From a virus, in the IMG/VR virus record IMGVR_UViG_3300030329_005016, positions 1 to 47,224 of that record: a stretch of DNA of 47,224 nt; one strand, 5' to 3'. Shown here piece by piece: positions 2,545 to 34,547 of the stretch. The notes beneath the pieces are model-generated. The model was not told where the DNA came from. It made no database searches and saw nothing but the letters and a program-made list of their open reading frames with translations. Position 1 is the first letter of the stretch. The number at the start of each line of letters is the position of its first letter. The translations under genes and the position numbers were made by a program.

Positions 2545-4385
2545 ATCCACCTCTCCTCGCCGGGCCCCCACAACGACCACACGACATCGCCATCCTGGAC
2601 TCCGTCTGTGAGCTGCATCGAGCCGTCCAGTGACAGCGAGCCGAAGGGCGCTGCGGTCCACGAGCAGACGAAGGCTTGGCCGCTCTGCGTTACTACGTCG
2701 CCAATGCGGTAGACGCGCTTCGCTTCCCGCTCGGGCCCGATGCCAAAGGGCTCGGCGGGGTGTAGCTGAGCGCCCGTCTGCGCATGGAACAGCACGTCGC
2801 CGGGCGCGTACGTGCCTCGAGGCATGTCGCCGGGCGTGACACTCGCCAGCAGTGCATCGCCCAGCAGCACACCGCGTGGAAACTGGAGCATCCCATAACC
2901 ACGCTCATGCCCACTCAGCCATCGTCGGCTGGTGTAGCCCGTGTTCCCCGTGTAATCCTCGATGGCGCCGTTGCTCGACCGTCTGTGGTGTCGCAGCTTT
3001 GCTCCGTCGTAGCGACGCAGCAGGTTGCTATAGGCAGAGACGTGATGACCGAACGTTGTGCGCTCGTTTGCCGTACCGAACTCGGCCCAGAGTTGGCTGC
3101 GTCCTACACGCGTCGCGGGCCCAGTTGGGGTTGCTCCGTGCGTACCTCCGAGAACGACGCAGTTTGCGCCGAACTCGGAAGACTGCTGCACGCCGCTCTC
3201 ACTGTAGGGGTGGAGAACGGAGCCGCTCTCGATCTTGTAGGCGCCCTGCGCATTCGCGCTTGTGTGTGGTGCTACCCACGTGTTTCCCAGCAGCGATTCG
3301 TCGAGGACACCCCAGCCACCACACCCAACCGCATCGGCGCCGATGAACGTGCCTGCGTTTGCGTCGCTGCCATCGACGAAGATCCCATGCCCCGTGCATG
3401 ATGTAACGCGCACCTGGTCCATGCGTGAGAGGTTTGCGTTCTCATCGAAGCCGCCCGCTCCCGCAACGATGGCGAGCCCCGATCCGGATGCTCGATCGAT
3501 GCGAATGCGTGTCAGCGATGAGCGCCGCTCCACAAGCACACCTGCGCCATGGAACCACCGCGCAGACGAGCGCGATGGCGCCGCTACGTTGAGCGCTGGC
3601 CACTGGTCTCGTTGAGAGATGGTGATGCTCGTCACCGCAGTGTCGACGCCGCACACACACAACCCTCGGCCGCCCTCGAACACCAGCTCGCTTGCGCCGT
3701 AGAGTCCATCACCCCAGCGCGCGCCGGCGCCTTCGATGTGCTGGCCAATGCCTCCGACCATTACGTCGGTGTGGCAAGCGAAGCGGCCTGGCGGGATGTC
3801 CCCGGCGATAAGTGTCGACGCGTCGTAGCAGAGCAGGCCCTCGGTGCCGTCGTCAGCGTCAATGCCAACGTCGAGCGAAACGGTATCGTTTACGCTCACC
3901 ACAGTGGCAGCGAGTCGGTCACGCGTAGGCTCGTTTGGTGGCTCGTCTGGTACCCACTCAGGCGCAGCAATCGCGCCGACGCTCATGCTCACGGTGAGGC
4001 CGGAGAGGATGCCAAGGCCACGCGGGTTTGCCAGGCATACGCCAGCCGTAGACCACGACGCGCCACCATCGACGCTTGTCCAGGCAACAACCCAGCGAGC
4101 GCCGGGAAAACCCTGCGCCCACGTCACATCGCCGAGAGTTGGCGCAAGCACGGGAGGCGACGCGGGTCCGCAGCCGCATGCATCGCTCATGAGTGCATAG
4201 CGCACAAGCCGTGTCTCATCTGGTGGCCCGTTGAACGTTGGGAGGCTAGGGGTAGTAAGCGCGCACAGTGGGCCCACGCCGTAAACGACGACCGGATCGC
4301 CAGGCACTAGGTCTCCTGCGGGCGCCGTGAGCTGGCCTTCGCGCACAACACAGGTGCGGCGGTAGGATGAGGCGCGCGGGGTCAT
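2541..4385 (-). CDS. Tail fibre / tailspike with beta-helix-like region
   Basis: 614 residues. The start at 4383-4385 overlaps the upstream stop (ATGA). Residues about 210-400 are Gly, Asn, Ser and Val-rich with short repeating strands (GSGLAIVAGAGG, TSCTGHGIFVDGSD, GAGVLVERRSSLTRIRI), the pattern of right-handed parallel beta-helix proteins such as pectate-lyase-fold tailspikes. The C-terminal part has short aromatic-rich strands typical of a binding or trimer-forming tip. The likely role is receptor recognition, perhaps with polysaccharide cleavage; no catalytic residues can be assigned by eye. It is the largest and last fibre-type gene of the tail module, where host-range proteins often lie. 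Confidence 0.7.
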   Translation of the reverse strand: MTPRASSYRRTCVVREGQLTAPAGDLVPGDPVVVYGVGPLCALTTPSLPTFNGPPDETRLVRYALMSDACGCGPASPPVLAPTLGDVTWAQGFPGARWVVAWTSVDGGASWSTAGVCLANPRGLGILSGLTVSMSVGAIAAPEWVPDEPPNEPTRDRLAATVVSVNDTVSLDVGIDADDGTEGLLCYDASTLIAGDIPPGRFACHTDVMVGGIGQHIEGAGARWGDGLYGASELVFEGGRGLCVCGVDTAVTSITISQRDQWPALNVAAPSRSSARWFHGAGVLVERRSSLTRIRIDRASGSGLAIVAGAGGFDENANLSRMDQVRVTSCTGHGIFVDGSDANAGTFIGADAVGCGGWGVLDESLLGNTWVAPHTSANAQGAYKIESGSVLHPYSESGVQQSSEFGANCVVLGGTHGATPTGPATRVGRSQLWAEFGTANERTTFGHHVSAYSNLLRRYDGAKLRHHRRSSNGAIEDYTGNTGYTSRRWLSGHERGYGMLQFPRGVLLGDALLASVTPGDMPRGTYAPGDVLFHAQTGAQLHPAEPFGIGPEREAKRVYRIGDVVTQSGQAFVCSWTAAPFGSLSLDGSMQLTDGVQDGDVVWSLWGPGEERWI

Positions 4386-5098
4386 AGCGCGAACTCCGCC
4401 TCGACAGCAGCCTGCGCCTGCGCGCGTTCGCTCGCACCCCATGCGCCGGACGCAATGGTCACCATTCGGACCTTGCCTACAAACGGCCCGCTTCCGCCAT
4501 GAGCAGAGCCAATGGCCATGCTCACAAGGGTGTCGATTACGCGGGGGTCGTACACCTGAGGGTTGTTTGAGTCGCTGACGTCGTCCTTAAGGTAGCCGTT
4601 TCCGGTGGCCCCGCTGAGCACAAAGACCTCGTAGTGCAGCGTCCCTGGCGCGAACCCCTCGTAGTTCCGGTATGTGCTGTCAAGGATGTCAAAAAGTGCG
4701 CTCCCGGCTCTTGAGCGACCTGTCAGGCGAGATCCCGACTTAAGGAAGTCGAACAAAAAGCGTCCGCTCGTCGACGAGCCATCGTGAAGGACGGCGATCG
4801 TCCAGGATGTACCTGCGTACCCAGTCGAGAACTGGGCGCCCGTCTCGTACCGGTGCGTGCCAGCCAGGCTCACAAATGCGCCAGTTGCGTCAGAACTCAC
4901 GATGGGTGTCCCGGTGCCTTGAAGGGCAAGGTCACCGGCCGTTCCCAGAGAGCCGCGGTTTGCCCACGCGGATGTCGTCGCGTCGCTTGCCCAATAGGAC
5001 AGCAACGAGTCGGGCATCGTCGGCGCACCACCACCCCCACGCGCGCGCATGCCGCTGCGCCCACCGCGACGCATCAGTGCTGGGATGCGGCGGGTCAT
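4382..5098 (-). CDS. Lectin-like (LamG/ConA fold) tail protein
   Basis: 238 residues, coupled by ATGA overlaps at both ends. After a basic, Gly-rich N-terminus, the sequence from about residue 30 follows the LamG-type concanavalin layout: SLLSYWASD, LSGTHRYETG-like strands, SWTIAVLHDG and a final FVGKVRMVTI strand before a helical end. Such domains bind sugars or glycans and occur on tail tips and fibres. Exact family not certain. Together with the neighbouring beta-helix protein it probably forms the receptor-binding apparatus. Confidence 0.65.
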   Translation of the reverse strand: MTRRIPALMRRGGRSGMRARGGGGAPTMPDSLLSYWASDATTSAWANRGSLGTAGDLALQGTGTPIVSSDATGAFVSLAGTHRYETGAQFSTGYAGTSWTIAVLHDGSSTSGRFLFDFLKSGSRLTGRSRAGSALFDILDSTYRNYEGFAPGTLHYEVFVLSGATGNGYLKDDVSDSNNPQVYDPRVIDTLVSMAIGSAHGGSGPFVGKVRMVTIASGAWGASERAQAQAAVEAEFAL

Positions 5099-5397
5099 GC
5101 TGCGCCAGCGCCAGGGCTAGACGGCACGAGGTGCGCGACGTGCGCTGCTCCACCCTCGCCGATGACGGCGACGTACGCGTCGTTCAGGTTGAACGAGACG
5201 ATGCTACCTGCGGCGACGTATGGGTCGTCGGAGTCTGCGGTGATGCTGTCTCCGCCCGACGTCACGCGCACCGCGGTGTCGCCGACGAAAAGTGTGTACC
5301 AGCGACCAACCTTCATCTCTGCGGTCCGCTGGCTGCCGGTGCCGCTTAGGTCTTGTGCGTTGGCGAAGTCATACGTGACTTTCTCTGCGTCGCTCAT
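5095..5397 (-). CDS. Small beta-rich tail-tip protein
   Basis: 100 residues with the start at 5395-5397, preceded by a GGAGA ribosome site about 6 bases upstream. A longer in-frame start would add an Arg/Ser/Pro-rich segment that looks like non-coding translation. The protein has alternating strands and no Cys or membrane segment. It sits between the paralogous tail proteins and the lectin-like protein. Function not recognised. Confidence 0.65.
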   Translation of the reverse strand: MSDAEKVTYDFANAQDLSGTGSQRTAEMKVGRWYTLFVGDTAVRVTSGGDSITADSDDPYVAAGSIVSFNLNDAYVAVIGEGGAAHVAHLVPSSPGAGAA

Positions 5398-5461
5398 GGT
5401 GGTCTCTCCAAACGAGAAAAGCCCCGCCGGATGGCGAGGCTTGGAAGTGGGTTGGTGCGCG

Positions 5462-6487
5462 CTACTCGTGGACGATGGCGCTTGCGAGGTAGATGGTGCC
5501 GCTGGTCGCGCGGATTTGGACGTTGATCTCGTCGTGACCGTCGCTCGCGCTTTCGCCGTCCGAGGTGGCGAAGTCCTCGGCGATGACCGGAACGTCGGTG
5601 AGCTGCGAGCTCCACGCCGCGGTTGTGTTCGAGATGGTGACCGCCGAGCTGACGTCCTTGGTTCCGATGACTCGGATCTGACCCGAGCCGCCGGCACTCA
5701 CCCACGCAAAGAAGCGCGCCTTGCAGTTCGTCACGACGGCGCCGTCGTTGTAGATCTTCCGCGCGAGCGCGAAGTGGTCGACGGGCAGCGCGCTGCTGAA
5801 CGTGCTCGAGCTCGTCGAGGCCGCGTAGCTCGTCGTGGGGCTGCCGTTTCGCAGGTAGGGTACCGCCCAGTGCAGAAGCACGCGCTTGCCGATGTCGACG
5901 TCTTGGGCGACGTCGATCATACGGGCGAAGGCATCAGCGCGAAGCGGCTGTCCTGTGCGCAAAGCCGGCAGGTTCACACCGCGTTCGTTCGTGTCCTCGA
6001 CGAGCACGCGGCGGGGGATTTCGATGCACTCGATGGAGTCGACGTCGACGTCCGCAGAACCAGTAGCCGAGGCATTGATGGTCAGCGTTGCGGCTTCCTC
6101 CGCTGTGGACTGCGACGCAAGCTCCTCCTCGTCGATGAGTCCAGGTGGGAGCTCGTATTGCTCGAGGGTGGTGAAACTTCCAGGACTGACAGCGCGAAGG
6201 GGTGTGCCGCCGTTGACGGTGACAACCACATTGCCCTCGCACCGTGCGGACACGCGCCATCGACGAACGAGGGCGTTGTACGTGGGCACCATGCGGAACG
6301 CGTAGGTGTACGACCCTTTGGTGAGCGTGCCGCCTGGCGGTTTGAACGAAGGAATGAGAACGCGACCACGACCCAGCAGATGGTTCGTCAGGTTCGCGTT
6401 CGTTTCCCATGCTGAGCCGCTGACTGCGCCGCTTGCAAAGATGCCGGCGATGTCCGCGTCGGGGCGCGAGTAGGAGGATTCAGCCAC
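5462..6487 (-). CDS. Minor tail protein, paralogue of the next upstream gene
   Basis: 341 residues from a GTG at 6485-6487, chosen because GGAG lies 7 bases upstream; an ATG at 6503-6505 is the alternative. The C-terminal half (about 190-341) resembles the product of 6480-7055: both have a VLLHWAV / VLVNWAV block, then strands, then an acidic loop and a closing strand. This suggests a duplicated beta-domain. The N-terminal half is Ser/Thr-rich with many predicted strands. Probably a tail-tip or fibre adaptor. No named family recognised. Confidence 0.65.
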   Translation of the reverse strand: MAESSYSRPDADIAGIFASGAVSGSAWETNANLTNHLLGRGRVLIPSFKPPGGTLTKGSYTYAFRMVPTYNALVRRWRVSARCEGNVVVTVNGGTPLRAVSPGSFTTLEQYELPPGLIDEEELASQSTAEEAATLTINASATGSADVDVDSIECIEIPRRVLVEDTNERGVNLPALRTGQPLRADAFARMIDVAQDVDIGKRVLLHWAVPYLRNGSPTTSYAASTSSSTFSSALPVDHFALARKIYNDGAVVTNCKARFFAWVSAGGSGQIRVIGTKDVSSAVTISNTTAAWSSQLTDVPVIAEDFATSDGESASDGHDEINVQIRATSGTIYLASAIVHE

Positions 6488-7055
6488 CGTAGAACTCCGC
6501 GGCATAGACGCCGGTCAACTCGACCTCGTCGACGGTTGAGACGTAGACACGGACCGTGGTCGCCGTGTCATCGAATGTGATGGGGTCGTCGCCAATCCCC
6601 TGGGGTGATGAGACAGTCATGCGGGGAGCGTCCGAGGCTTCGGCGATGAGGCCCGCCACGTTTCCAATACCTGTCGGAGCAAGCCATGCACTCGACGTGC
6701 TCGACGTCGAAAAGGACTCCGTCCCGCGTCCCACGTAGACGAGGAACGTCACCGCAGAGCCAGCGCTCGTGCGACGTCCGCGCAGCTTCACACGGACAGG
6801 AAACAGGGTTCCGTCGCTACGCACGCGACGGTAGATGGGTCCGGACTCCCAGAGCGGTCGACCGCCGCTTGATGTTCCGTTTCTGTCGCGCGTGATGCCA
6901 TCGCCATCACTCACCGCCCAGTTCACGAGCACCTGACCATGGCTCTTCGAGTGGTGCTGAAGGTTCGACGCCGTGATGCGCTTCGCGACGGTGTCGACGG
7001 GGTCGTCCGCAGCGTGCTCGCCCGTGTCGATGCGAATGAGTGTTGACCACGTCAT
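6480..7055 (-). CDS. Minor tail protein
   Basis: 191 residues, start overlapping the upstream stop by 4 bases. It shares layout and short motifs with the C-terminal half of the downstream neighbour (QVLVNWAV, a SAG...TFLVYVG strand and a final acidic-loop-plus-strand unit). The two genes are adjacent and look like an old tandem duplication. Inferred tail-tip component. Confidence 0.65.
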   Translation of the reverse strand: MTWSTLIRIDTGEHAADDPVDTVAKRITASNLQHHSKSHGQVLVNWAVSDGDGITRDRNGTSSGGRPLWESGPIYRRVRSDGTLFPVRVKLRGRRTSAGSAVTFLVYVGRGTESFSTSSTSSAWLAPTGIGNVAGLIAEASDAPRMTVSSPQGIGDDPITFDDTATTVRVYVSTVDEVELTGVYAAEFYGG

Positions 7056-9634
7056 GGCGCGAACTCACCCGCAACGACGTCGCCGCCGCTGAACGAAACG
7101 AACGAATCCGTGTCCGCCATGTAGGCCCATGACTTCTGTGCTTCGGCGGTGACCTCGCTGGCTGCTGCGTAGCGAATATAGCGCGTGCCTGTCAGCGTCG
7201 GCGCCGAGTCGAAGGTGACGTCCATGTCGGAAGGTCCCACCGAAGCGACCGTCGCAGGCTGAGGCGTCTGACTCGAGCTGTCCCATTCCATGACCTCGAT
7301 CCGCGTGCCGGCTGGGAATGCGTCTGCGAGGGTCAATCCGGACGGCGCCAAGCTCACGCCGTCGGGTGACTCGAGGGCGACGGTCAGCGTGTATTTCGTT
7401 GCCGACGTCGGCGAGCTCGCGGAGATCGCAGCGGTAGGCGTGTAGCCGAGTAGCTGCGCATCGCTGACGATAATCGTCAGGGTGCCGACACCGCGCGCGA
7501 GGTCCCACGCACGACCCGTGACCATGCCCTTCACGTTGGATACGCCGCGCACACCAGTTCGCACATTCGGAATGCGGTGGCTCGTGATGCTACACACCGT
7601 GCCAACGAGCGCGGTCGTGCGCAGCGTCCATGGCACTTGCACTGTGAGGATTGAGTAGGGTCGACCAAAGACGCTGAGCGTACGACGTAGAGCGGTGACG
7701 ATTTGGTTCACCGCATCCTCGTCATAGTCGACCGTGTCGCCAGACAGCGGTTCGATCTTCAGCTCTTTCGACGTCTTCACGACACTGAGGCTCGTAACGT
7801 CTCGGACTCGGTAGGTCGGGCCAAGGTGGTCGTCTTCCTGCGGGTTGTAGCCCGTCAGCACTTCAACCGTGTTGATGCTGCCCCAAATGCCGTTGCGCTC
7901 CCACGTCAGCGTTTCATCGCTGGCGAGGATATTCGTCTCGTCAAGCTCGAAGTCTGCGGGCGTCGACTCTGTAGGGAGCTCGAGATACCCGAGCGCGATC
8001 TTGCCGTCGCTGTCGAGGCGCGGGAAGAGCCCGAGAAGCCGGCACTCGTGCGCGATGAGCTCACCGAGCTTCACCGACTGCGCGATGGTGTAGTCGCGTT
8101 GCGCAAGAGATCCTGCAGACGTCGCAGCTCTCTCAACTTCCGCGTCCCAGCTTGCCAGGTCTGTCGACGTAACGAACGGTGCAGCGCCTCGGTTCGCGTC
8201 TGCGGGTGCGTTCGCAATGAGCGCATCGCGGAAGTCTGCGAGCGTGCCGCGAACGTATTTCCCAAACCGTTTGAACGATGGGGTGTTGTCGAGTTCAGGC
8301 GCGAAGAAGGGCGCCGGCCGATCTGGGCCAAGGCTGATCTCGTAGCGCTGCTCGGCGTCGTCGTCGCGCGTGACCGTCCACGATGGTGCGTCGTCGGAGT
8401 CCGACTCGAGCGTCACGATGTCGCCGAAGTTCAGCAGCGTCGTCCCGTCCGGGTAGATCGTGAACTGGTTGTTGTCTTCGGTAGGCGCGGCGTAGGCGAT
8501 GGCGCCCGAGTGCGGCCCCCACACGCCACGCGGAGCGATCATTCCCTTTTCGAACTTGAGCGTCCACAAGGCAGCCGTGCCCAAAGCACCATCCGCGTAG
8601 TAGTCCTGCGTCACGTTGAGCGGGGTCAAGCCACCCCGAACCTCATCAGCGACCACCCAAAGCAACTCGGTTTCGCTCGAGTCCGTCTCGAAGCGCACGC
8701 CCCAGTACCCATCACCAATCGGGACGGCAGCGAAAGAGCTCGAGACAATGGCATCCGTCCATGTCTGCACTGCTGTGGCCTGCGAGTTGATCTCATCGCA
8801 GAGGTCGTCGACTGTCTCGAAGTGGCCAGTGATGATCAGCTGCTCGTGCTCGAGCGCAGGCGTGAAGTCGCCAGGTGTTACCCGGTAGAGATTTAGGATC
8901 AGCGGAGCGAAGAAGCTGTAGTAGTACCCACGCAAACCAAACGGTTTCTCCGCATCGCCGCCGACATCCTGTTGGAAGAGCGCGAAGATGCTGTCGACCT
9001 GCATCGACCACCGCGTCCCGCCCTGCTCGAGCTGAAAGTCGGTGGTGGCGATGCCGCGCCAGATGAGCGTGCCGTCGCCCTGGAGATCGTCGCCGTCTTG
9101 GTACTCGTAGAGGAACACCCGCCGACCTTCGAGGGTCGTTGGGTAGGTCTCGGTGATGACAGGGTTGACGAGGTTGGCGCCGTCCTTGACGTAGTGGGCC
9201 TGCCGCTGCGTGCCCCGTGCCCCGCCCGCGAGCTCGAGCTCGGTGCTCGACGGGATGGAGAAGACCAAAAAGCACTCGGTGCCCATGTGGGCGTACTCGC
9301 CGGCGGTGAAGCTAGCGGAGGAGTCCACGTCGACGGTGACCGGAAAGCTCGTGGCGTCGACGTCCGAGGTCAGCCACGTGCGCACAGAGGGCTGACGCGC
9401 GCAGTGCTCGCACCACTCCTCACCCGGCTGCTCGACGATGGTGATCGTCATTCCGCCCGACTCGGTTTCGCCGGCGGCGAGGTCGCACTGCTCTTCGAGC
9501 ATGAGCCCTTCACGGAGCAGCCCCCGAATGCGGGAGGTACCATCGCTACCCGTGCCCTCCATCGCCGGCGACGTCACCGCCTCAGCTCCCCACCCCTCGA
9601 TCGCCAAGCGGTAGTTCGTGAAGGTTGCTGTCAT
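7052..9634 (-). CDS. Large tail-tip (hub-like) protein
   Basis: 860 residues. The ATG at 9632-9634 faces the start of an opposite-strand lipoprotein gene. The N-terminus has SGGMTITIVEQPGEEWCEHC near residues 60-80 and then a long beta-rich body with strands of about ten residues, Trp/Tyr-rich in the centre and Gly/Thr-rich at the end. Size, fold pattern and position (second gene after the tape measure, before fibres) fit the central tail hub or tail-tip protein of siphoviruses. The family was not identified by motif. The C-terminal 150 residues look like fibronectin-type domains. Confidence 0.7.
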   Translation of the reverse strand: MTATFTNYRLAIEGWGAEAVTSPAMEGTGSDGTSRIRGLLREGLMLEEQCDLAAGETESGGMTITIVEQPGEEWCEHCARQPSVRTWLTSDVDATSFPVTVDVDSSASFTAGEYAHMGTECFLVFSIPSSTELELAGGARGTQRQAHYVKDGANLVNPVITETYPTTLEGRRVFLYEYQDGDDLQGDGTLIWRGIATTDFQLEQGGTRWSMQVDSIFALFQQDVGGDAEKPFGLRGYYYSFFAPLILNLYRVTPGDFTPALEHEQLIITGHFETVDDLCDEINSQATAVQTWTDAIVSSSFAAVPIGDGYWGVRFETDSSETELLWVVADEVRGGLTPLNVTQDYYADGALGTAALWTLKFEKGMIAPRGVWGPHSGAIAYAAPTEDNNQFTIYPDGTTLLNFGDIVTLESDSDDAPSWTVTRDDDAEQRYEISLGPDRPAPFFAPELDNTPSFKRFGKYVRGTLADFRDALIANAPADANRGAAPFVTSTDLASWDAEVERAATSAGSLAQRDYTIAQSVKLGELIAHECRLLGLFPRLDSDGKIALGYLELPTESTPADFELDETNILASDETLTWERNGIWGSINTVEVLTGYNPQEDDHLGPTYRVRDVTSLSVVKTSKELKIEPLSGDTVDYDEDAVNQIVTALRRTLSVFGRPYSILTVQVPWTLRTTALVGTVCSITSHRIPNVRTGVRGVSNVKGMVTGRAWDLARGVGTLTIIVSDAQLLGYTPTAAISASSPTSATKYTLTVALESPDGVSLAPSGLTLADAFPAGTRIEVMEWDSSSQTPQPATVASVGPSDMDVTFDSAPTLTGTRYIRYAAASEVTAEAQKSWAYMADTDSFVSFSGGDVVAGEFAP

Positions 9635-9659
9635 GGAAAGGTGTGGTTACGGTGCAAAA

Positions 9660-9986
9660 ATGCGACGACTATGGATGATGGGTGCGCTGCTATTGGTGGC
9701 GTTGGGTGGGTGCTCCGAAGACATGACGGAGCCTGCGATGTACACAGACACCGTGTCGTTCGTTGCGGACGCAGGAGATCCAGAAACCGAGTGTGGATGC
9801 TTGCCCGGATACGAACCCATCTGCATGGCTGGTGATGCAGAGGTGGTGGTCGTGGCCGCCTGTGATGGCACAAGAGCGCAGTTTGGAGGTCGGCCAATAC
9901 ACGCATGGGACGCCGACATCCTGGCGATGTGCGACGAGTACAACGAGTTCACCAACCCGATCCCCGTCTTCTGCCGGCTCCGCTAA
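9660..9986 (+). CDS. Lipoprotein on the opposite strand (moron)
   Basis: 108 residues from the ATG at 9660. The N-terminus MRRLWMMGALLLVALGGCS is a clear lipoprotein signal: Arg pair, hydrophobic core, lipobox with Cys at 18. The mature part has six more Cys (including ECGC) and would be exported and anchored. It lies between two co-directional tail genes but on the other strand: its start faces the start of the hub gene, and its stop overlaps the stop of 9983-10747. This is the usual layout of a moron, an independently expressed gene acquired by a phage and often active in the lysogen. Surface exclusion of other phages is a common role for such lipoproteins; the function here is unknown. Confidence 0.8.
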   Translation: MRRLWMMGALLLVALGGCSEDMTEPAMYTDTVSFVADAGDPETECGCLPGYEPICMAGDAEVVVVAACDGTRAQFGGRPIHAWDADILAMCDEYNEFTNPIPVFCRLR

Positions 9987-10747
9987 AGCCGCCCGAGCAC
10001 GCGCGTCTTCACGCTGAGGTCGAACAGGTCTCGAAAGTCTGGCTGCACGTGTGCGGGCTTGAAGCGATCCTCGCCGGCCCGCAGCTTGTGCACCGTCTCG
10101 TCACCGAAATCGTCGGACACGAGGAACGGATGCACCACCGCGCAGTGGCGGTAGAAGTGCTGCCACGTCCACGGCACAGCGGCCGTAGCCTCGCGTTCGT
10201 AGACGACCGCGCGCGGCTCCATACGGCACATCCAATCTGCGTAGATGGCGCGCCCAGTCGTCGAGATGCCGAAGGCGCTGCCGTCCTCGGCCTCGGAGTC
10301 CTCGCTGTAGCTCGTGGCCTCGTAGTCGTCGGAGTCGGCGGACTTGCCGCCCATCTCCGAGAGGAGCGAGAAGTAGGGCAAGGCATCACCGTTCTCGGTC
10401 GCTCCGATGGTGCCGGGGCTGGACTGAAAGCCGAGCACCTGCCCCATGCGAGCGTGTGCCGCGTCGGCTTCATCCGCACCGCACGTCACGGACGGCGTGC
10501 CTGAGACGCGGTTGAGGCGGTAGTAGCCGGTCGAGAGGTACTCGACCGTCACCGTCGTCACGCCAGCCGTGGTCAACGCCGCGTTGATGGTGTCCTCGAG
10601 GGCGGTGTACTCGCTCGCGCCGTCGACACTCGAGATGTCCTGATGGCAGAACTTCCCGCTAGAGATGGTCACGTCCGTTGCGTCGACGGTGATTTTCAGT
10701 GAGCCGAACGACGCTACGTTGAAGCCGCATTCGATCTTCAACGTCAT
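9983..10747 (-). CDS. Distal tail-type protein
   Basis: 254 residues, ATGA overlap with the tape measure gene. The first 110 residues are beta-rich, the middle is acidic (about 130-165, Asp/Glu/Ser), and the end has many aromatic residues. It is the gene straight after the tape measure, where siphoviruses usually encode the distal tail protein that caps the tube. No motif was recognised, so the role rests on position. Confidence 0.65.
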   Translation of the reverse strand: MTLKIECGFNVASFGSLKITVDATDVTISSGKFCHQDISSVDGASEYTALEDTINAALTTAGVTTVTVEYLSTGYYRLNRVSGTPSVTCGADEADAAHARMGQVLGFQSSPGTIGATENGDALPYFSLLSEMGGKSADSDDYEATSYSEDSEAEDGSAFGISTTGRAIYADWMCRMEPRAVVYEREATAAVPWTWQHFYRHCAVVHPFLVSDDFGDETVHKLRAGEDRFKPAHVQPDFRDLFDLSVKTRVLGRL

Positions 10748-12552
10748 GTGCCGAACCTTCGGTTTGCCGCGCGCTCGGCGCGACCTTGCTGGCGTCCGAT
10801 CTGAGCCTCGGACGTGGGCGCGTTGAAGTTGACGACGATGGTGCCGCCGTTTCCTCCCCCTCCGTCGTTACCACCCGCAGGTGTCGGGCGCGTTGCCTCT
10901 GCGCCACCGCCAGGGCTTGCGGCGTTCGGGATTGCCGCGCTGGCTCCACCAGCGGCGGCGGCAATCGCGAAGTGTCCGGCAGCCTGGGCAGCCTTCGCCG
11001 CCGCGTGGGGCTGGTTCATGACAGCCGCACCGATGGCTTCCACCGTCGCCGCTGCGCCCTTCCAGGCCTGTTCGATGGCGAGCTGCTTCAACCATTCGTC
11101 GACCGCGGTGCGGAACGCCTCTTTGGTCGACATGGCGCCGTCCTCGGAGAGCTGGATGGTCTTTTGGGTGACCTCGGCGATGCCTTCCAGGCCCGCCATG
11201 CTCATTTCTTGGGCGCGCTTTACCCGTCGCTCGAGGTCGATTTGTTCCTCGCGCGCTTCGGCGATTTCCTGCGCCTTGTCCTTCTGCTCGCGGAGCGCTT
11301 CGCTCTGCGCGTTCATGAGGTCGAGGCGCTCGCGTTCCGCCTTCACGAGCTCGGCGGCCACCTGGGCCTTCGAGGTCTGGTTTTCGAGCAAGCGAACCTC
11401 GGCGGCTTCCTGCTCCGCCATGCGTTGCAGTAGCTCTTCCTTCGCCTTGACCTCGGTGGCGGGTCCTTCGACGCTGGCGCTCTGACGTCGACGTCCGCGA
11501 CCTCCGCCACCACCTGGGCGGTCGTCGTTGGGGTCAAAGGCGAGCATGCCGGCACCCGTGTCCCGGTTACCGCCTGCCATGGCTGCCGCGCGACCCTCCA
11601 TGGTGAGCTGCCCAATGCGATCAATCATGGAGCCGGGGTCTTCGATGGCGTCGAGGCGTTCCCACCGGCTGATGTCGAGCGGGTCGCTGATTGCGTTCGA
11701 GGCGGCGGACATGACGCGGGCGTAATGCTCGACCTGTTCGGCGAGGGCAGCGAATGCCGCCGCGCCGCTGATGGCGAGCTCTTGGCTGAGCGATAGGCCC
11801 GAGTTGGTGTCGTCGAGCTCGTCGAACAGGACGCCGGCAGCCGTGCTCAGACTCTCCATGCCTCGCTCCAAAAGGCCGGAGTCGTTGACGGCCTGGATCA
11901 TCTCCGTCTGGGTGTCCTCCATGCGGTTCGTGAGCACTTGCAGCATGCCGCCCAGGGTGTCGGCGCTGCTTTCGGAGTCCTCGTAACCGCGTGTGAGCTG
12001 ACGGATGGCGGAGTCCTGCTTTTCGGCCATGTCCGTAATGCCCTCGAGCTCCACGCCGTACTCACGGAGTGCACCCGAGCGCCCGGTGGCGAGCGCCTGC
12101 ATGAGCCGGTTCAAGGACTCGGTGGCGTCGCCGCCCGTCTGCGCGGCGAACTCGGCGGCACGCACGCTCAGCGTGGCGAACTGCGAGCTTGTCAGCTCGA
12201 GACCCGCAGCGCTGGCCCGACTCTGCGCCGTCATGAGGTCGATTTGAGTGATCAGCCCGTTGGTGCGCCGTGCCGCCTCCGACACGTCACCGCTGAAGCG
12301 GTTCATGATGCCCGCTTGGCGCTCGAACTCGTTTGCGGCACCCGTTACGGCGTCTTTGAGCTTCGAGAGCATGCCAATCGCGGCTTGGCCCGCGAGCACG
12401 CCGGCCGTGAGGTTCTGCGCGAAGTTCGAGCCCGACGAGCTCGCGCCCTCCATGCCCTCGGACACCTCGCCCAACTCCTTCTCCAAGTCGCGAAGATTGC
12501 GCACGGCCTCGTCGGTCGTGATCTTCACTTCGGCTTCGAAGGCTTCAGCCAC
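10744..12552 (-). CDS. Tail tape measure protein
   Basis: 602 residues. Ala/Glu/Gln-rich helices with coiled-coil character run through most of the protein. Hydrophobic stretches occur at about 50-70 (LTAGVLAGQAAIGML) and 270-285, and a Gly/Pro-rich part lies near 350 and again at 560-580. The block GLELTSSQFATLSVRAAEFA followed by MQALATGRSGALREYGVEL is typical of tape measure proteins. It sits right after the tail chaperone frames, as expected. Tape measure length scales with tail length at about 0.15 nm per residue, which would give a short siphovirus tail of roughly 90 nm, if not processed. Confidence 0.9.
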   Translation of the reverse strand: MAEAFEAEVKITTDEAVRNLRDLEKELGEVSEGMEGASSSGSNFAQNLTAGVLAGQAAIGMLSKLKDAVTGAANEFERQAGIMNRFSGDVSEAARRTNGLITQIDLMTAQSRASAAGLELTSSQFATLSVRAAEFAAQTGGDATESLNRLMQALATGRSGALREYGVELEGITDMAEKQDSAIRQLTRGYEDSESSADTLGGMLQVLTNRMEDTQTEMIQAVNDSGLLERGMESLSTAAGVLFDELDDTNSGLSLSQELAISGAAAFAALAEQVEHYARVMSAASNAISDPLDISRWERLDAIEDPGSMIDRIGQLTMEGRAAAMAGGNRDTGAGMLAFDPNDDRPGGGGGRGRRRQSASVEGPATEVKAKEELLQRMAEQEAAEVRLLENQTSKAQVAAELVKAERERLDLMNAQSEALREQKDKAQEIAEAREEQIDLERRVKRAQEMSMAGLEGIAEVTQKTIQLSEDGAMSTKEAFRTAVDEWLKQLAIEQAWKGAAATVEAIGAAVMNQPHAAAKAAQAAGHFAIAAAAGGASAAIPNAASPGGGAEATRPTPAGGNDGGGGNGGTIVVNFNAPTSEAQIGRQQGRAERAANRRFGT

Positions 12553-13057
12553 GGGTGTGTTTCGCTTTCTTCGCTTCGACCTCGCGGAGCTCCGCGAGGT
12601 TCTGGTTCAGGAGACGCGTGTACAGCTGCACGCCCTCCCAGAGATGCTGGTAGGGGTTCTGTGCACGCAGGCTTGCAAGGTGGACGCTGCCCTCGCGGTC
12701 GACGACGGCGGACGCGTGGAGCGCCAAGACGTCGCGGACGACAGGGTCAATAAATGCACGCCATGGGCACGTGTTGAGCTTCGCGCCGGACGCCGAGCGC
12801 TCGATGACACGCAGGGTGCGCAACGCGGCGTCGCTTCGCGGCGTGTTTGAACGGTGGCTTACTCCGTCGCAGTCGCAGCGGTAGCCTTCTCGCCACCGTC
12901 GGGCGTCGGCGCCTCCGCCTCCGGCTCGCCGGACTTCCGGGACGCTTCGAGCGAACGGGCCTTCTCGATCGCAGCCACACCATGGTGGGCTAGCCTCGCC
13001 GTGTAGGCGGCAAGCAGTAAAGGCGGCGGCGGATAGGAGCCCGCGCTGTTCGGCGGT
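12545..13057 (-). CDS. Downstream (gpT-like) frame of tail assembly chaperone
   Basis: This frame has no good start of its own and overlaps the 3' part of the upstream chaperone gene in the -1 frame. Residues encoded after 12860 look like real protein (basic helix, then LNQNLAELREVEAKKAKH) and end 8 bases into the tape measure gene. The arrangement matches lambda G/GT, where a -1 ribosomal shift fuses the two frames. The coordinates start at the first -1 codon after the TTTTTTA heptamer. The overlapping stretch 12860-13057 has better codon statistics in the upstream frame, so the real shift could also lie nearer 12860. Confidence 0.6.
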   Translation of the reverse strand, partial: TAEQRGLLSAAAFTACRLHGEASPPWCGCDREGPFARSVPEVRRAGGGGADARRWREGYRCDCDGVSHRSNTPRSDAALRTLRVIERSASGAKLNTCPWRAFIDPVVRDVLALHASAVVDREGSVHLASLRAQNPYQHLWEGVQLYTRLLNQNLAELREVEAKKAKHTRG

Positions 13058-13479
13058 AAAAAAGACCGCGCGAACGCCACTGCTCCGATCTCTTCCACAA
13101 AGCCCGGCGCGACGTGAAGAAGGTCGTCGTCGGAGAAGCACGGAATGGTGTTGCCCCAGAGCGTGCGAGAGTCGCTCGGAGCGAAGCGGGGGATCGGCTG
13201 CCCGGTCTTCACGCTCACGAGGTCTTCGATGCCGGTCACGGCAAGGCGGAACGCTTCGCGGTGTCGGCGCACATCCGTCGGCGCGTCCATGACGAACGCC
13301 TGGAACGCGTCGGCGTCGATGTGCTTCAGCGTGAAGACGGTCGGCTTCTCGCCAGGGTGGATCTTCACGAGGGACGCGTCGCGGGTGCGCATGTAACGCT
13401 GTGCGTCGCGTCCCATGCCGATGACGTCGACCGCCATGTCAACGACGGAATAGACCTTGATGGCCTTGGTGCTGTTCAT
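12859..13479 (-). CDS. Tail assembly chaperone, gpG-like
   Basis: 206 residues; the ATG at 13477-13479 is preceded by GGAAGGGAG. It lies between the tail tube and tape measure genes with a second overlapping frame behind it, the hallmark of tail assembly chaperones, which bind the tape measure protein during tail polymerisation and are absent from the finished particle. The first 140 residues are a mixed alpha/beta domain. The last 65 are Pro/Ala-rich and then Glu/Ala/Thr low complexity. No family motif recognised; the call rests on position and frame layout. Confidence 0.75.
   Translation of the reverse strand: MNSTKAIKVYSVVDMAVDVIGMGRDAQRYMRTRDASLVKIHPGEKPTVFTLKHIDADAFQAFVMDAPTDVRRHREAFRLAVTGIEDLVSVKTGQPIPRFAPSDSRTLWGNTIPCFSDDDLLHVAPGFVEEIGAVAFARSFLPPNSAGSYPPPPLLLAAYTARLAHHGVAAIEKARSLEASRKSGEPEAEAPTPDGGEKATAATATE
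13057..13063 (-). promoter_or_regulatory. Candidate -1 frameshift heptamer TTTTTTA
   Basis: On the minus strand the codons TCT TTT TTA at residues 139-141 of the chaperone contain T TTT TTA, the X XXY YYZ form of a slippery site in the correct phase. A -1 slip there enters the frame that runs to 12545. No strong stem-loop is seen just downstream. Confidence 0.5.
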
Positions 13480-13499
13480 GTCTCCCTTCCTCTCTCAGC

Positions 13500-14735
13500 T
13501 CACAAGAAATGGAGCCGAAATGCCGCGTATTGGATGTCGGCGTCGTCCGCCTGGGTCGTGAAGCTGTCGGTGGTCGCCGAGAAGGTGACCGCCTGGTAGG
13601 CGAGTCCGCCCTCGTCGATCAACTGCACGTTCGTCACCTGCGCCTTCGGCACCTCGAGCAACACCACAAAGCCGGCGACCGTTCCGATCTGAATGGTCAA
13701 TCCGTAGTATTCGCCGTCGTCGCGCTCCGTGAACCAACTCGTGTCCTCGTAGGGAATGTGAGCAGTCAGCGTGCAGAATGGCACCGCGCGGTTGCGCCGG
13801 TAGCGCTTGATGGTGTTGGTGCCGCAGCCCGAGCGGACGGGCGTGTACACCGGCGAGTTCATCGCCAGGTTGATGGTCGCCGCGTCGAGGCACACGCCGG
13901 AGATGGAGCCGGACGCAACGCCGTTGATGGCGCGCAGGCTGCCGGTGTACGCGACGGGCGTGAAGGTGCCGTAGTCCGCGACGGTGATCGCGGCGCTCGG
14001 CTCACTCGCCCAGTTCGCGAACGTGATCGTGAACGAGATGGTAGGGATTTCGCCGAGGGCGACGGTGATGGCCGGTGCGCTTGTGACCTGCCCACCCATC
14101 AGAAGCCAGCGGTCGTCCTGCTCGGCGCCCTCAACGATCATCTGAATCGACGTCAGCGGGTTCGCGGTTGGATGAATGGTCGTGCCCGCATAGAGAACAT
14201 CGCTTGCCGTAGGTGTGGCGGAGAGCTGGTCTTTGAGTTGAATCGTGGTTGCCGCCAAGCCGCGGACAGACCTCGCTTCAAAAACACCCGCAGAGTTGAC
14301 CCATCCGATGGACTCACCACCATCCCAGCCAGCAGGGGAGCCGATGAGCTGGTATGAGGCTGCGGCTGATGTGACATCACCACCCGTGTTCTCGTCGTTC
14401 GCCCCGCCGAACACAATCTTCAGCAGGAGCAAGAGCGCTTGGTCGTCGAACGCGGGCGAGTCACTGCCATCGCCCGCAGCCACACCCGTCGCGCCCAGTG
14501 GCACGGTTACCGAGAGCTCGGCGCTCTTCGGACCGAAGACGATCTGATTCCGCGCGTCGATGCGCTGTTGCGCAACCTGCGCGTCGAGCTCCGGAAGGTT
14601 CAGCGTCAGGTTCGCAGTGCCCTCCTGAAACGGAAGGTCGAGATACGTTGCCGAGCCCGTGACGTCGGTGGCGAACGCGCCGTCGGCTTCTTCGGTGAGC
14701 GCAATCCGTCGTAGCGCGTGCAGTTCGATGCTCAT
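13500..14735 (-). CDS. Major tail (tube) protein
   Basis: 411 residues. Beta-rich throughout with Thr/Val/Gly strands and a distinct C-terminal part after about 290 that could be an Ig-like decoration domain. It is placed between the tail terminator-type gene and the chaperones, where the tube protein normally lies. It is long for a tube protein, which agrees with an added domain. The downstream 20-base gap to the chaperone gene contains its ribosome site. Confidence 0.75.
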   Translation of the reverse strand: MSIELHALRRIALTEEADGAFATDVTGSATYLDLPFQEGTANLTLNLPELDAQVAQQRIDARNQIVFGPKSAELSVTVPLGATGVAAGDGSDSPAFDDQALLLLLKIVFGGANDENTGGDVTSAAASYQLIGSPAGWDGGESIGWVNSAGVFEARSVRGLAATTIQLKDQLSATPTASDVLYAGTTIHPTANPLTSIQMIVEGAEQDDRWLLMGGQVTSAPAITVALGEIPTISFTITFANWASEPSAAITVADYGTFTPVAYTGSLRAINGVASGSISGVCLDAATINLAMNSPVYTPVRSGCGTNTIKRYRRNRAVPFCTLTAHIPYEDTSWFTERDDGEYYGLTIQIGTVAGFVVLLEVPKAQVTNVQLIDEGGLAYQAVTFSATTDSFTTQADDADIQYAAFRLHFL

Positions 14736-14741
14736 GGGTCC

Positions 14742-15275
14742 TCAGCTCGTGGGTGTGGTCACGCGGACGACGCCGGTGAATCGGTGGGTGGTGACAAGGC
14801 GCCCGTTCGTGCCGCCGGAAAACTCGATGGTCCCCAGCGCAGACGAGACGTCGTTGAGACAGCCGGACACGAGCCCGGTCGCAGACGCGGCCTCCGTCGC
14901 CGTCAGGTTGCCGGGCCACGTCAACGCTTGCGCGATACTGTGGCCGTCTTCGATGGCGAGCGCAGACAGCGCGGTGCGCGCGTCGGTGCTCAGGTCCTGG
15001 TAACCGCTGAAGTCGCGCACCAAGCGGACGTCGACGGTGATTTCTTCGAGGGTGAATGTGCCCTGGCGCGGTGGCCGTGACGCATGCGGTCGACGGTCCA
15101 CGATGCGTGCCTCGATGCGCGGCGAGGTCAGCGAGCCCACGCTGTCCGCGAGGACGTCGAGGGCCTCGTGCGTCCCCGGCTCGTACGTGTCGGCGGCGAC
15201 CGTGCGCACCGCGCCGTAGCCATCCTCGAGCACCTCACGGATGCGCGTCAGGATGGCGAGGGCGGGAAAGCTCAA
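14742..15275 (-). CDS. Tail terminator-like protein
   Basis: 177 residues; ATGA-type overlap with the upstream gene. The N-terminal helix (ALAILTRIREVLED) followed by strands and the order tail completion protein, this gene, tube protein match the gpU-like tail terminator that stops tube growth and joins the head. No family motif beyond the layout. Confidence 0.6.
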   Translation of the reverse strand: MSFPALAILTRIREVLEDGYGAVRTVAADTYEPGTHEALDVLADSVGSLTSPRIEARIVDRRPHASRPPRQGTFTLEEITVDVRLVRDFSGYQDLSTDARTALSALAIEDGHSIAQALTWPGNLTATEAASATGLVSGCLNDVSSALGTIEFSGGTNGRLVTTHRFTGVVRVTTPTS

Positions 15276-15757
15276 GGTCGGGTGCCGTGGATCACGTAGG
15301 CGATGACGTCAGCGCGCGTCTTCTCGAGCCACGCCGCAGCGGGTCCGCTCGAAAAGTCGGGGTTACCGTCTTCGTCCATGGGGAGGTATGCGCGGCGCGG
15401 CATGGTGCTCGTGCCAGTGACGTGAAACACGCCGTACTTCGCGGGCGCGCCGGACGTGCCGAATACGATGGCCTTACTCCGCACCTGCGCGTTGGACGCT
15501 TGGCGAAGCGCGCCGGTGTCGAGCAGCGGCTTGCTCGATCCCTGCCGTCGCTTCTCGACGGTCGACTCTGCGAGCGCTTGCCAGCCCGCACCGTTCGGCG
15601 AACGCGACGTGCGGAACGACTCGTCAATGACGCTGCCCAGAAGAGCCGCGCGGCGCTTCAGGATGGGGTCGAGGTTCGCGAGCCGCTCGCCGAGGGCTTG
15701 GATGCGCTGCGGGAGTGTGCCGAACGACTTCTCGTCGATGGTGAATCCGTCAGCCAT
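15272..15757 (-). CDS. Virion morphogenesis / tail completion protein (Mu gpG, P2 gpS type)
   Basis: 161 residues. A helical N-terminus, the segment SRSPNGAGWQALAESTVEKR, then LLDTGALRQASN and near the end YGVFHVTGTSTMPRRAYLPM. The L-x-D-TG-x-L-R and H-x-x-G-x-x-x-MP-x-R-x-(Y/F)-L pattern is characteristic of the phage virion morphogenesis family (P2 gpS/Mu gpG-like head-tail joining or tail completion proteins). The stop/start overlaps on both sides couple it to connector and terminator genes. Confidence 0.85.
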   Translation of the reverse strand: MADGFTIDEKSFGTLPQRIQALGERLANLDPILKRRAALLGSVIDESFRTSRSPNGAGWQALAESTVEKRRQGSSKPLLDTGALRQASNAQVRSKAIVFGTSGAPAKYGVFHVTGTSTMPRRAYLPMDEDGNPDFSSGPAAAWLEKTRADVIAYVIHGTRP

Positions 15758-16230
15758 CAGACGAGGTTCGCGAGGTCACGCATGACCGGGCGCCGGAAGA
15801 TGCGGCGCGACGTCGTGCCGGTGGTGACCGTCTCTTCGGTCGGCGTGAACTTCGAGCCGCCTGTCGCTTCGGAGAGGTTCGACACGCTCGTCGACGCGAG
15901 CGGGAGCTCGCCGGAGCGCACGCCCTCGGGGATTGGAGCGAGGATGGCGGCGAGCGACGGCGGGATGTCGCGGGCCTTTCGTCCGTACGCCATGTGCACG
16001 AGGAACGAGAGCGCCAGCGCCTTCACGCTGTCGTCGTCAGTCTCTTCGGCGGGCGCATACCCGGCCTGCTTCGCGCTGGCGAGCGCAAGGCTCGAAGCGA
16101 TTTGCGCGGCGCGGGTAAAGCGAGTGCTGTACTCGCTGCCGCTGTCACCGTCGTCGGTGAAGAGAAACTGACGGACCTTGCCGTCGCACACCGCATCGAA
16201 GTCGGCGGTGTCTACGTAGGCGATGGGCAT
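15757..16230 (-). CDS. Head-tail connector, Mu gp36-like
   Basis: 157 residues. The N-terminal part has a helix-rich fold with small Ala-rich helices (AAQIASSLALASAKQAG) and VHMAYGRKARDIPPSL, the layout of the DUF1320/Mu gp36 family of connector proteins. The C-terminus is Thr/Ser-rich ending in RRIFRRPVMRDL. It overlaps the downstream morphogenesis gene by one base. Confidence 0.7.
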   Translation of the reverse strand: MPIAYVDTADFDAVCDGKVRQFLFTDDGDSGSEYSTRFTRAAQIASSLALASAKQAGYAPAEETDDDSVKALALSFLVHMAYGRKARDIPPSLAAILAPIPEGVRSGELPLASTSVSNLSEATGGSKFTPTEETVTTGTTSRRIFRRPVMRDLANLV

Positions 16231-16258
16231 TCGTCAGTCCTCGAAAGTAGGTGGCGCG

Positions 16259-16295
16259 GCCCCGGAGGGAAGGAAGGGAGAGGTCCCTCCGGGGC
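16259..16295. other. Strong 12-bp hairpin between capsid and connector genes
   Basis: GCCCCGGAGGGA at 16259-16270 pairs perfectly with TCCCTCCGGGGC at 16284-16295 around a 13-base loop. There is no T-run on either side, so it is not a standard intrinsic terminator. It lies in the only sizeable gap (84 bases) of the structural operon and could be an RNA stability or processing element that raises capsid mRNA over downstream mRNA. Confidence 0.75.
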
Positions 16296-16314
16296 GTTGC
16301 CTGAGAGTGACGCA

Positions 16315-16551
16315 CTACGAAGAGGCGTCAGTCGTGGGCGCCTTCGAGCTCGTCGAAGACTTCGCCTGTTCGGCGCTGGCTTTCTGGGGTGCCTTCCCCG
16401 AGTCACGCGACTTGTCGCGGACCTTGCGAGGCTTCACCCACCCGCGCTCAATGGCGCGAGTGAGTGCCTCCGACTCTTCGAGGTCCACCACCGCGTCGGT
16501 GGCGTACCGCCGACCGTTGATGATGCATGCCTCAGCGAATCGAACCTTCAT
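16315..16551 (-). CDS. Small head protein (Mu gp35-like position)
   Basis: 78 residues, start overlapping the capsid stop (TGATG). The first 40 residues look like the small beta-hairpin plus helix unit seen in Mu gp35-like proteins (INGRRYATDAVVDLEESEA). The tail is Lys/Ser/Ala low complexity. It is followed by the hairpin. Function unknown. Confidence 0.65.
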   Translation of the reverse strand: MKVRFAEACIINGRRYATDAVVDLEESEALTRAIERGWVKPRKVRDKSRDSGKAPQKASAEQAKSSTSSKAPTTDASS

Positions 16552-17486
16552 CAGGCGTCGAGGCCAGTCAGAAGGAAGCCCATGTCGTCCTGGACTGTCT
16601 TCTCGTCATCCGAGAAGGCCACCTGAACGTACTCGCCACCGCGCGGGCCCTTGTGGGGCGCGTCGTACACGCGGGCCTGAACCGGCATGCTGGCGGTGAA
16701 GCGGAAGGTCGCAGCGAAGAGACCCACTTCGTTGACGGGTTCGCCGGTTGGGACGCGCACGATCGCGAAGGAGTCGTCGCCCCATACACGCTCATGCGAG
16801 ACGGCTTGGCCGGGGTTCGCGGTGTTCTTGATGGCCGTTCCGATGAAGATCTCATCGAGCCCCAAGATCTCCGCGATACGAGACATCGTCTCGACGCGGT
16901 TTTCGCTGCCTGGGCCACGGAGGTCCGCATGGCGGCGAAGAGCGTTTCCAATCTCGAGACCACCAACGCCGACAAGCTTGCTGTCGCCGATCATGCTCGG
17001 AGGGATGGCCTCGATGGCAGCAGCCACATCCTCGAGAGGAGTGCCCGCGTCCGAGAACCAGTTGGAGCCGTTGGTCGTGTTGGCTGCCGCATAGTTGCCC
17101 GCCGTCAACAGCAAGTTCGCGACACGGATCTCACGGCTCAAAAGAAGCTTGTTCATGACGAGCTTCGCCGCGTATTCGCGTGGCTTCTGCGGGTCATCAG
17201 CGTTGGCGACCTCGTCGACCGTGACGAGACGCCGAAGCGCTCGGTCGGTCACCGAGTAGTTGTCGACCTCGATGGCGTAGGGAACGTCATTCGCTTCGCC
17301 GTCGGTTGCGATGCGGTCGCTCTGTTCGGTCGTCCAGTCCGAAAGCTTGTACTTCCGGTAACTGTCCGAGCGGTGGTCGACCTCGATGATGGGGGCCACG
17401 GTGTCGGCGATGTAGTCGCCGTTGGTGTAGCCCGAGATGAATGTGGAGAGTGGTCCGTCGAGATGGACGTCGTTTGCGTTGCTCAT
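16551..17486 (-). CDS. Major capsid protein
   Basis: 311 residues. The sequence pattern PLSTFISGYTNGDYIADTVAP, then a polar linker, then VTDRALRRLVTVDEVANADDP fits the N-arm and start of the HK97-type capsid core of phages whose capsid gene follows a decoration protein. The C-terminal part contains GDDSFAIVRVPTGEP and short strands as in the P-domain. It is preceded by a small decoration-type gene and a protease/scaffold gene, the normal order of a head module. No delta domain is present; the separate scaffold makes that unnecessary. Confidence 0.85.
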   Translation of the reverse strand: MSNANDVHLDGPLSTFISGYTNGDYIADTVAPIIEVDHRSDSYRKYKLSDWTTEQSDRIATDGEANDVPYAIEVDNYSVTDRALRRLVTVDEVANADDPQKPREYAAKLVMNKLLLSREIRVANLLLTAGNYAAANTTNGSNWFSDAGTPLEDVAAAIEAIPPSMIGDSKLVGVGGLEIGNALRRHADLRGPGSENRVETMSRIAEILGLDEIFIGTAIKNTANPGQAVSHERVWGDDSFAIVRVPTGEPVNEVGLFAATFRFTASMPVQARVYDAPHKGPRGGEYVQVAFSDDEKTVQDDMGFLLTGLDA

Positions 17487-17496
17487 CTTGGCCTCC

Positions 17497-17904: not shown

Positions 17905-17957
17905 TGGTTTTCCTATTCATTTGGCCGACTGCCCCGGGCCAGCGTGGTTGGGTGTCG

Positions 17958-18004
17958 GTAGCGGGAGCGCGGGGCCGTGCGTCGCTACCTGCCGGCAAGC
18001 CGGC
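17958..18004. other. Two small inverted repeats in a 109-base gap
   Basis: GTAGCG (17958-17963) pairs with CGCTAC (17983-17988), and GCCGG CAAG CCGGC (17991-18004) is a second hairpin. There is no T-run. The pair lies between the protease/scaffold gene and the decoration gene. It could affect mRNA stability. A weak observation. Confidence 0.5.
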
Positions 18005-18013
18005 GTGATTCGT

Positions 18014-22225: not shown

Positions 22226-22228
22226 TCG

Positions 22229-34139: not shown

Positions 34140-34547
34140 ATGGAGGTGATGAAACGAACGATCCTGATGGTCGCGCTGCTGGTCGGCGCTTGTGGGGATG
34201 ACGCTGCGTGGAGCGTCTTCGACTACTCGTGGGAGCAGACCGTTGTCGCTGGAGACATGCCCTGCGGGCCGCTCGGTGAGCCGCTCTGGGATGGGCCACC
34301 ACCCACGCCGGATTGGGCGACGCAACCAACCGAGGAGTGGCGCGTCATCAGCAGCACACCCGGCGAAGAGTTCACCGTTGAGCGCACACTCCTGCCGGGC
34401 GGTGACACGTACACCGTCTCGTGGACCCGCTACGTACCGCCGTCGGGCTTCGAGCCCGAAGAGATGCGCAGCATCCGTCTCGACGGTCGCATCACTGGCG
34501 ACTCGTGCGACGCAGGCATGCAGTGGCAAGGGACGCTGATCGAATGA
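34140..34547 (+). CDS. Lipoprotein on the opposite strand (moron)
   Basis: 135 residues from the ATG at 34140; a second ATG lies at 34149. MKRTILMVALLVGACGDD is a lipoprotein signal with lipobox LVGAC. The mature part has paired Cys and Trp/Pro-rich strands. It is divergent from the CII-like gene (44-base gap) and converges with the Cro-like gene (2-base gap), so it sits backwards within the leftward early operon. As with 9660-9986, an envelope function in the lysogen, such as exclusion of other phages, is an inference. Confidence 0.8.
   Translation: MEVMKRTILMVALLVGACGDDAAWSVFDYSWEQTVVAGDMPCGPLGEPLWDGPPPTPDWATQPTEEWRVISSTPGEEFTVERTLLPGGDTYTVSWTRYVPPSGFEPEEMRSIRLDGRITGDSCDAGMQWQGTLIE

What the first reader, a model, noticed from the sequence alone, without database searches (positions are those of the whole stretch)
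9660..9986. Lipoprotein moron inside the tail module
A single gene with a lipoprotein signal stands on the other strand between the distal tail and hub genes, in a late operon that is otherwise seamless. Its start faces that of the hub gene, and its stop overlaps the neighbour. This is the classic place for lysogenic conversion genes.
Basis: partly seen in the sequence, partly recalled or inferred. Interest (0 to 1): 0.6.

Follow-up and report, generated by a model that had tools for sequence, protein, structure and literature searches.

The report
Phage lipoprotein gene within tail genes
A phage carries, reading the opposite way in the middle of its tail genes, a small gene for a lipid-anchored, cysteine-rich protein that most likely blocks the host's surface so that further copies of the phage cannot attach; the layout is known from E. 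coli phages, but the protein itself is a new sequence.

Summary
Window 9660-9986 (+) encodes a 108-aa lipoprotein precursor. It is divergent from the 860-aa tail gene (7052-9634, starts 25 nt apart), and its stop shares 4 nt with that of 9983-10747 (-). It is real: the only relative found, the complete phage genome IMGVR_UViG_3300040801_002785, has a counterpart in the same place, strand and geometry. The flanking proteins are 79-80% identical, but the lipoprotein body cannot be aligned. What is kept is the start, the signal peptide and six body cysteines in the same spacing (random-placement P about 6e-4).

The window phage has an integrase and repressor-type genes. The sister has no tyrosine or serine recombinase yet keeps the gene, so 'lysogenic conversion' is too narrow. 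The best analogues by anatomy are superinfection-exclusion lipoproteins: T5 llp, divergent from the receptor-binding gene oad, and Rtp45, on the opposite strand near the J-like gene. No sequence similarity links them, and receptor blocking is inferred, not shown. Verdict: a new sequence family of a known kind; moderate interest. A second opposite-strand lipoprotein gene lies at 34149-34547.

The parts
9660..9986 (+). lipoprotein precursor, 108 aa; signal peptide residues 1-17, lipidated Cys18, six further Cys at 45, 47, 55, 68, 91, 105
   Evidence: orthologous counterpart L003:6777-7109 (-)
9635..9659 (.). 25-nt gap between the divergent start codons of the lipoprotein and the 860-aa tail gene
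   Evidence: same geometry in sister
9625..9653 (+). promoter-like TTGCTG (9625-9630), 17-nt spacer, TACGGT (9648-9653), 6 nt before ATG: same geometry as TTGCAG-17-TATAGT in the sister; weak here, inferred only
   Evidence: sister score P about 0.015; window score not above background, P about 0.28
9983..9986 (.). CTAA: overlapping stop codons of the lipoprotein (+) and of 9983-10747 (-)
   Evidence: sister has the same 4-nt overlap
7052..9634 (-). 860-aa tail gene (called 'hub' from its place after the tape measure; no family match)
   Evidence: 79% identical in sister
9983..10747 (-). 254-aa tail gene ('distal tail' by position only)
   Evidence: 80% identical in sister
34149..34547 (+). 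second opposite-strand lipoprotein ORF (MKRTILMVALLVGAC|GDD..., 132 aa), between the CII-like gene (33607 to about 34095, -) and an HTH gene (34550-34798, -); not related in sequence to the first

Best explanation
The gene encodes a secreted, lipid-anchored, disulphide-rich protein that is expressed on its own from the divergent gap beside a tail-tip gene. It most likely works as a superinfection-exclusion lipoprotein of the T5 Llp / Cor / Rtp45 kind. Made in infected (and, in the window phage, possibly lysogenic) cells, it would sit at the outer membrane, bind the phage's own receptor and prevent adsorption of further virions and loss of progeny on debris. Shown here: the gene, its conserved place and orientation, its signal peptide with lipobox, the six-Cys pattern, and the extreme divergence of the body between two phages with otherwise similar tail modules. 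Inferred: lipidation, disulphides, outer-membrane location, expression, receptor binding and exclusion.
For: Lipobox signal peptide. Orthologous place, strand, start and stop overlap in the only relative. The body cannot be aligned (shuffle P 0.19) while six Cys keep their spacing (2-8-13-23-14 against 1-8-18-25-14, P about 6e-4). It is the only gene called in the tail/head module from 5095 to 24086 without a tblastn match in the sister; this fits fast, target-driven change. Beyond the module the adhesin-like genes also differ between the two phages (window 2541-5098 against the sister's SASA-domain protein). T5: oad (-) and llp (+) are divergent with promoters both ways, and Llp blocks FhuA (PMC9586334). 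Rtp: rtp45 is on the opposite strand near the J-like gene, and Rtp45 changes LptD so that the receptor-binding protein cannot bind (PMC12685063). In mEpimmI temperate phages exclusion lipoproteins lie in the structural cluster, and the two types tested exclude phages that use OmpA or LamB respectively (PMC11893012). The sister lacks integrases but keeps the gene.
Against: No sequence match to Llp, Cor or Rtp45 or to any phage record, Pfam, NCBIfam or PADLOC family; the best PHROG match is weak. The mature protein (about 91 aa, six further Cys) is larger than Llp, Cor and Rtp45 (precursors 76-78 aa). The sister's lipobox is imperfect (LCGAC). There is no structure (pLDDT 38), the host and receptor are unknown, and the promoter in the window is weak.
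Confidence: 0.5

Rival explanations
1. Lysogenic-conversion lipoprotein that changes the host surface or fitness but does not exclude phages.
For: The window phage has an integrase and repressor-type genes; a second opposite-strand lipoprotein gene lies in its regulatory region. In the sister a perfect palindrome (CATGTTATAACATG) in the lipoprotein's promoter has a near copy in the intergenic region of an HTH gene, none expected by chance, as if a phage regulator controlled both.
Against: The sister has no tyrosine or serine recombinase. The place beside the tail-tip gene and the divergent body have no clear reason under this reading.
Confidence: 0.25
2. A lysis component (outer-membrane spanin, Rz1-like) or another lysis-regulating lipoprotein.
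For: Small phage lipoprotein; weak PHROG match to an Rz-like spanin family over residues 3-49, E 0.041, much of it signal peptide.
Against: The lysis genes lie elsewhere and on the other strand: Amidase_2 endolysin 45280-46014, a membrane/lipobox protein 46437-46943 with a sister homologue, and a holin-like ORF near 25-270. The gene is not proline-rich and is not nested in another spanin gene.
Confidence: 0.05
3. A virion-associated or tail-assembly protein that happens to be on the other strand.
For: It sits among tail genes in both phages.
Against: Every other gene called in the module keeps 65-97% identity, whereas this body cannot be aligned; it has an export signal.
Confidence: 0.07
4. 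Chance antisense ORF or remnant without function.
For: No homologues beyond the sister; somewhat lower G+C at third positions (0.69 against 0.74-0.86 in nearby minus-strand genes).
Against: Same start, signal peptide, six-Cys spacing and stop overlap in the sister; such ORFs are rare in simulated sequence.
Confidence: 0.05

Closest known systems
Llp (lytic conversion lipoprotein) of phage T5
   Same: Small lipoprotein gene, divergent from a tail receptor-binding gene (oad) with promoters in the gap; Cys-containing body
   Different: No sequence similarity; 77 aa with one disulphide against 108 aa and six body Cys; at the edge of the late region, not between two tail genes; virulent phage, whereas the window phage has an integrase
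Rtp45 of phage Rtp
   Same: Lipoprotein gene on the opposite strand close to the J-like tail gene
   Different: 76 aa, no similarity; another gene (rtp44) lies between it and the J-like gene; target LptD known (PMC12685063)
Cor of N15 / T1 and Lpp of mEpimmI phages
   Same: Lipoproteins encoded in or near the structural cluster that exclude phages using the same receptor (PMC11893012; PMC13164509)
   Different: N15 cor is on the same strand as the tail genes; no sequence similarity to N15 Cor; receptor here unknown
Ltp of Streptococcus phage TP-J34
   Same: Phage-encoded superinfection-exclusion lipoprotein (PMC3952083, abstract only)
   Different: From a Gram-positive host; not compared in sequence here

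Membership tests
Llp/Cor/Rtp45 superinfection-exclusion lipoproteins | lipoprotein signal peptide with lipobox | tested here: met
   LGGC in the window; the sister's LCGAC is imperfect
Llp/Cor/Rtp45 superinfection-exclusion lipoproteins | encoded beside the tail-tip/receptor-binding gene, as an independent unit | tested here: met
   divergent from the 860-aa tail gene in both phages; compare T5 and Rtp. That this gene is the tail tip is inferred from order
Llp/Cor/Rtp45 superinfection-exclusion lipoproteins | sequence similarity to known members | tested here: not met
   BLASTP against Llp, N15 Cor and Rtp45: nothing below E 0.2; known members are themselves only about 20% identical (PMC9586334)
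Llp/Cor/Rtp45 superinfection-exclusion lipoproteins | fold | tested here: inconclusive
   AlphaFold2 with two sequences gave pLDDT 38
Llp/Cor/Rtp45 superinfection-exclusion lipoproteins | blocks the phage's receptor / excludes superinfection | not testable with these tools
   needs host and plating assays
moron (stand-alone inserted gene) | single gene between genes that are adjacent in relatives lacking it | tested here: inconclusive
   only one relative found and it has the gene
moron (stand-alone inserted gene) | own promoter | tested here: inconclusive
   sister TTGCAG-17-TATAGT, P about 0.015; window same geometry but not above background
moron (stand-alone inserted gene) | own terminator | tested here: not met
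   no plus-strand terminator-like site between 9986 and 10674
moron (stand-alone inserted gene) | expressed in the lysogen | not testable with these tools
   no RNA data; window phage has an integrase, sister has none

The most novel reading that the evidence does not exclude
A new family of six-cysteine exclusion lipoproteins outside the well-studied coliphages, whose body is rebuilt between close phages while the start, signal peptide and cysteine scaffold stay, transcribed as a near-leaderless mRNA from the divergent gap by a promoter that the phage's own regulator controls (shared palindrome in the sister), so that receptor locking is switched with the phage's life cycle.
Probability: 0.15. 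Interest if true: 0.5.

Novelty: new member of a known kind. Interest (0 to 1): 0.33.

Why it matters
If right, it shows that placing an exclusion lipoprotein back to back with a tail-tip gene, known from T5 and near that in Rtp, recurs in a phage lineage whose putative tail-tip protein matches none of about 50,000 sequenced phage records. It also gives a simple rule for finding such genes without sequence similarity: look for a lone opposite-strand lipobox ORF beside the tail tip. The fast-changing body on a fixed cysteine pattern would point to the receptor as the driver.

Tried and rejected
No significant family matches in Pfam, NCBIfam or PADLOC and only weak ones in PHROGs. No tblastn match in phages; one weak plasmid hit, E 0.3, not followed. 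Scans of IMG/VR with the lipoproteins, the two flanking genes and the major head protein found only the one sister; genome contigs gave nothing with the hub alignment or the head protein, so host and prophage relatives stay unknown. AlphaFold2 failed for lipoprotein (pLDDT 38) and hub (pLDDT 28); no fold search was run on such models. PDB sequence search: nothing significant. MAFFT misaligned the later cysteines, so the cysteine argument rests on spacing, not on that alignment. Spanin reading rejected because a lysis cassette lies elsewhere. A shared operator between lipoprotein and regulatory region was sought in the window too: none.

Full report
What was checked. The window is a whole IMG/VR virus record of 47,224 bases. 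Its ends share a 98-bp repeat, so it is probably complete. The minus-strand block from about 5.1 to 24 kb holds terminase (22229-23650), portal (20825-22225), head maturation protease (18014-19942), major head protein (16551-17486) and a minor tail protein (13500-14735) by PHROG matches, followed by a 602-aa gene in tape-measure position (10744-12552), a 254-aa gene (9983-10747) and an 860-aa gene (7052-9634). The last three have no significant family match, so 'distal tail' and 'hub' are inferred from gene order.

The gene. 9660-9986 (+) encodes MRRLWMMGALLLVALGGC|SEDM..., a signal peptide with canonical lipobox and a body with six cysteines after the lipidated one. Its start lies 25 nt from the start of the 860-aa gene on the other strand; its stop overlaps the stop of the 254-aa gene by 4 nt. 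In simulated sequence of the same dinucleotide make-up such lipobox ORFs are rare: 0.13 per 47 kb over six frames, 0.017 with a core as hydrophobic as this. G+C by codon position (0.61, 0.49, 0.69) is that of a coding frame, with a somewhat lower third position than its neighbours.

The relative. All scans led to one other phage, IMGVR_UViG_3300040801_002785, 50,211 bases with a 117-bp terminal repeat. Every other gene called in the block 5095-24086 has a match there with 65-97% amino-acid identity; only the lipoprotein has none at E 1e-3. Yet the sister has an ORF in exactly that gap, on the same strand, with the same divergent start and the same 4-nt stop overlap: MRRLRIMGALLALCGACSTEM..., 110 aa. 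The first 25 residues are 56% identical. The bodies align no better than shuffled sequence (P 0.19), but both hold six cysteines with spacings 2-8-13-23-14 and 1-8-18-25-14; random placement gives so close a match about 6 times in 10,000 (the comparison was chosen after seeing the sequences). I conclude that the two are the same gene, changed beyond recognition except for start, signal and cysteine pattern. The sister's lipobox (LCGAC) is imperfect, so lipidation there is less certain.

Expression. Upstream of the sister's ATG stands TTGCAG, 17 nt, TATAGT, 6 nt, ATG, which would put the transcript start at or just before the start codon; its score is reached by 1.5% of random sites. The stretch is one of the most A+T-rich in that genome and holds a perfect palindrome, CATGTTATAACATG, whose only near copy in the genome (12 of 14) lies in the intergenic region beside an HTH gene; none appeared in 20 simulated genomes, though this was noticed afterwards. 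The window has the same geometry (TTGCTG-17-TACGGT-6-ATG), but its score is not above background, and no shared operator was found. No terminator-like site follows the gene. Independent expression is therefore suggested, not shown.

Life style. The window phage has a tyrosine integrase (41567-42985), an ImmA/IrrE-type gene, an HTH gene and a CII-like gene. The sister has no tyrosine or serine recombinase; the same search for the tyrosine family rang in the window and in all 14 control genomes. The sister genes examined are mostly replication, repair and endonuclease genes and one HTH regulator. The gene thus does not go with integration, which weakens 'lysogenic conversion' as its sole reason.

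Comparison with known systems. In T5 the lipoprotein gene is divergent from the receptor-binding gene oad, with promoters in both directions in the gap; Llp binds FhuA from the periplasm and makes two outer loops fold inward so that pb5 cannot bind (PMC9586334). In Rtp, rtp45 is on the opposite strand near the J-like gene, and Rtp45 changes LptD with the same effect (PMC12685063). In temperate mEpimmI phages, exclusion lipoproteins are encoded in the structural cluster, and the two types tested exclude phages with a given receptor (PMC11893012). The window gene matches these in position, size class and export signal, but not in sequence, and it has more cysteines. It works, most likely, like them; membership is not shown.

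Other readings. A lysis role is unlikely, since an Amidase_2 endolysin, a membrane/lipobox protein and a holin-like ORF lie at the other end. A virion role is unlikely given the divergence. A fitness or surface-changing gene for lysogens remains possible, and a second opposite-strand lipoprotein ORF at 34149-34547 in the regulatory region of the window phage leans that way.

Verdict. It is a new sequence family of a known kind, worth a plating test once a host is known.

Noticed in passing
window 34149-34547 (+): Second opposite-strand lipoprotein ORF (MKRTILMVALLVGAC|GDD..., 132 aa) between the CII-like gene (start about 34095, -) and an HTH gene (34550-34798, -); divergent from one and ending 2 nt from the other, the same layout as the finding. 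No homologue found.
   Followed up: partly
sister G001 38266 (lipoprotein promoter, in L003) and 11473 (L004): Perfect palindrome CATGTTATAACATG in the lipoprotein promoter with one near copy in the intergenic region beside an HTH gene: possible common operator.
   Followed up: partly
window 3-100 and 47127-47224: 98-bp direct terminal repeat: the record is probably a complete genome.
   Followed up: yes
window 43410-43853 (+): Mom-like DNA modification protein (PHROG E 9e-38) next to an HNH endonuclease (42982-43413) and the integrase.
   Followed up: no
window 12545-13141 and 12859-13479 (-): Two overlapping frames before the tape measure, both conserved in the sister (89% and 84%): possible frameshifted tail-assembly chaperone pair.
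   Followed up: no
L006:2828-5305 (sister), against window 2541-5098: The adhesin-like regions after the tail module differ between the two phages; the sister's protein carries a SASA (sialic-acid-type esterase) domain.
   Followed up: partly
window 16551-17486 (-): Major head protein distantly related (27-29%) to those of Pseudomonas phages B3 and JBD67, while the 860-aa tail protein matches no sequenced phage.
   Followed up: no
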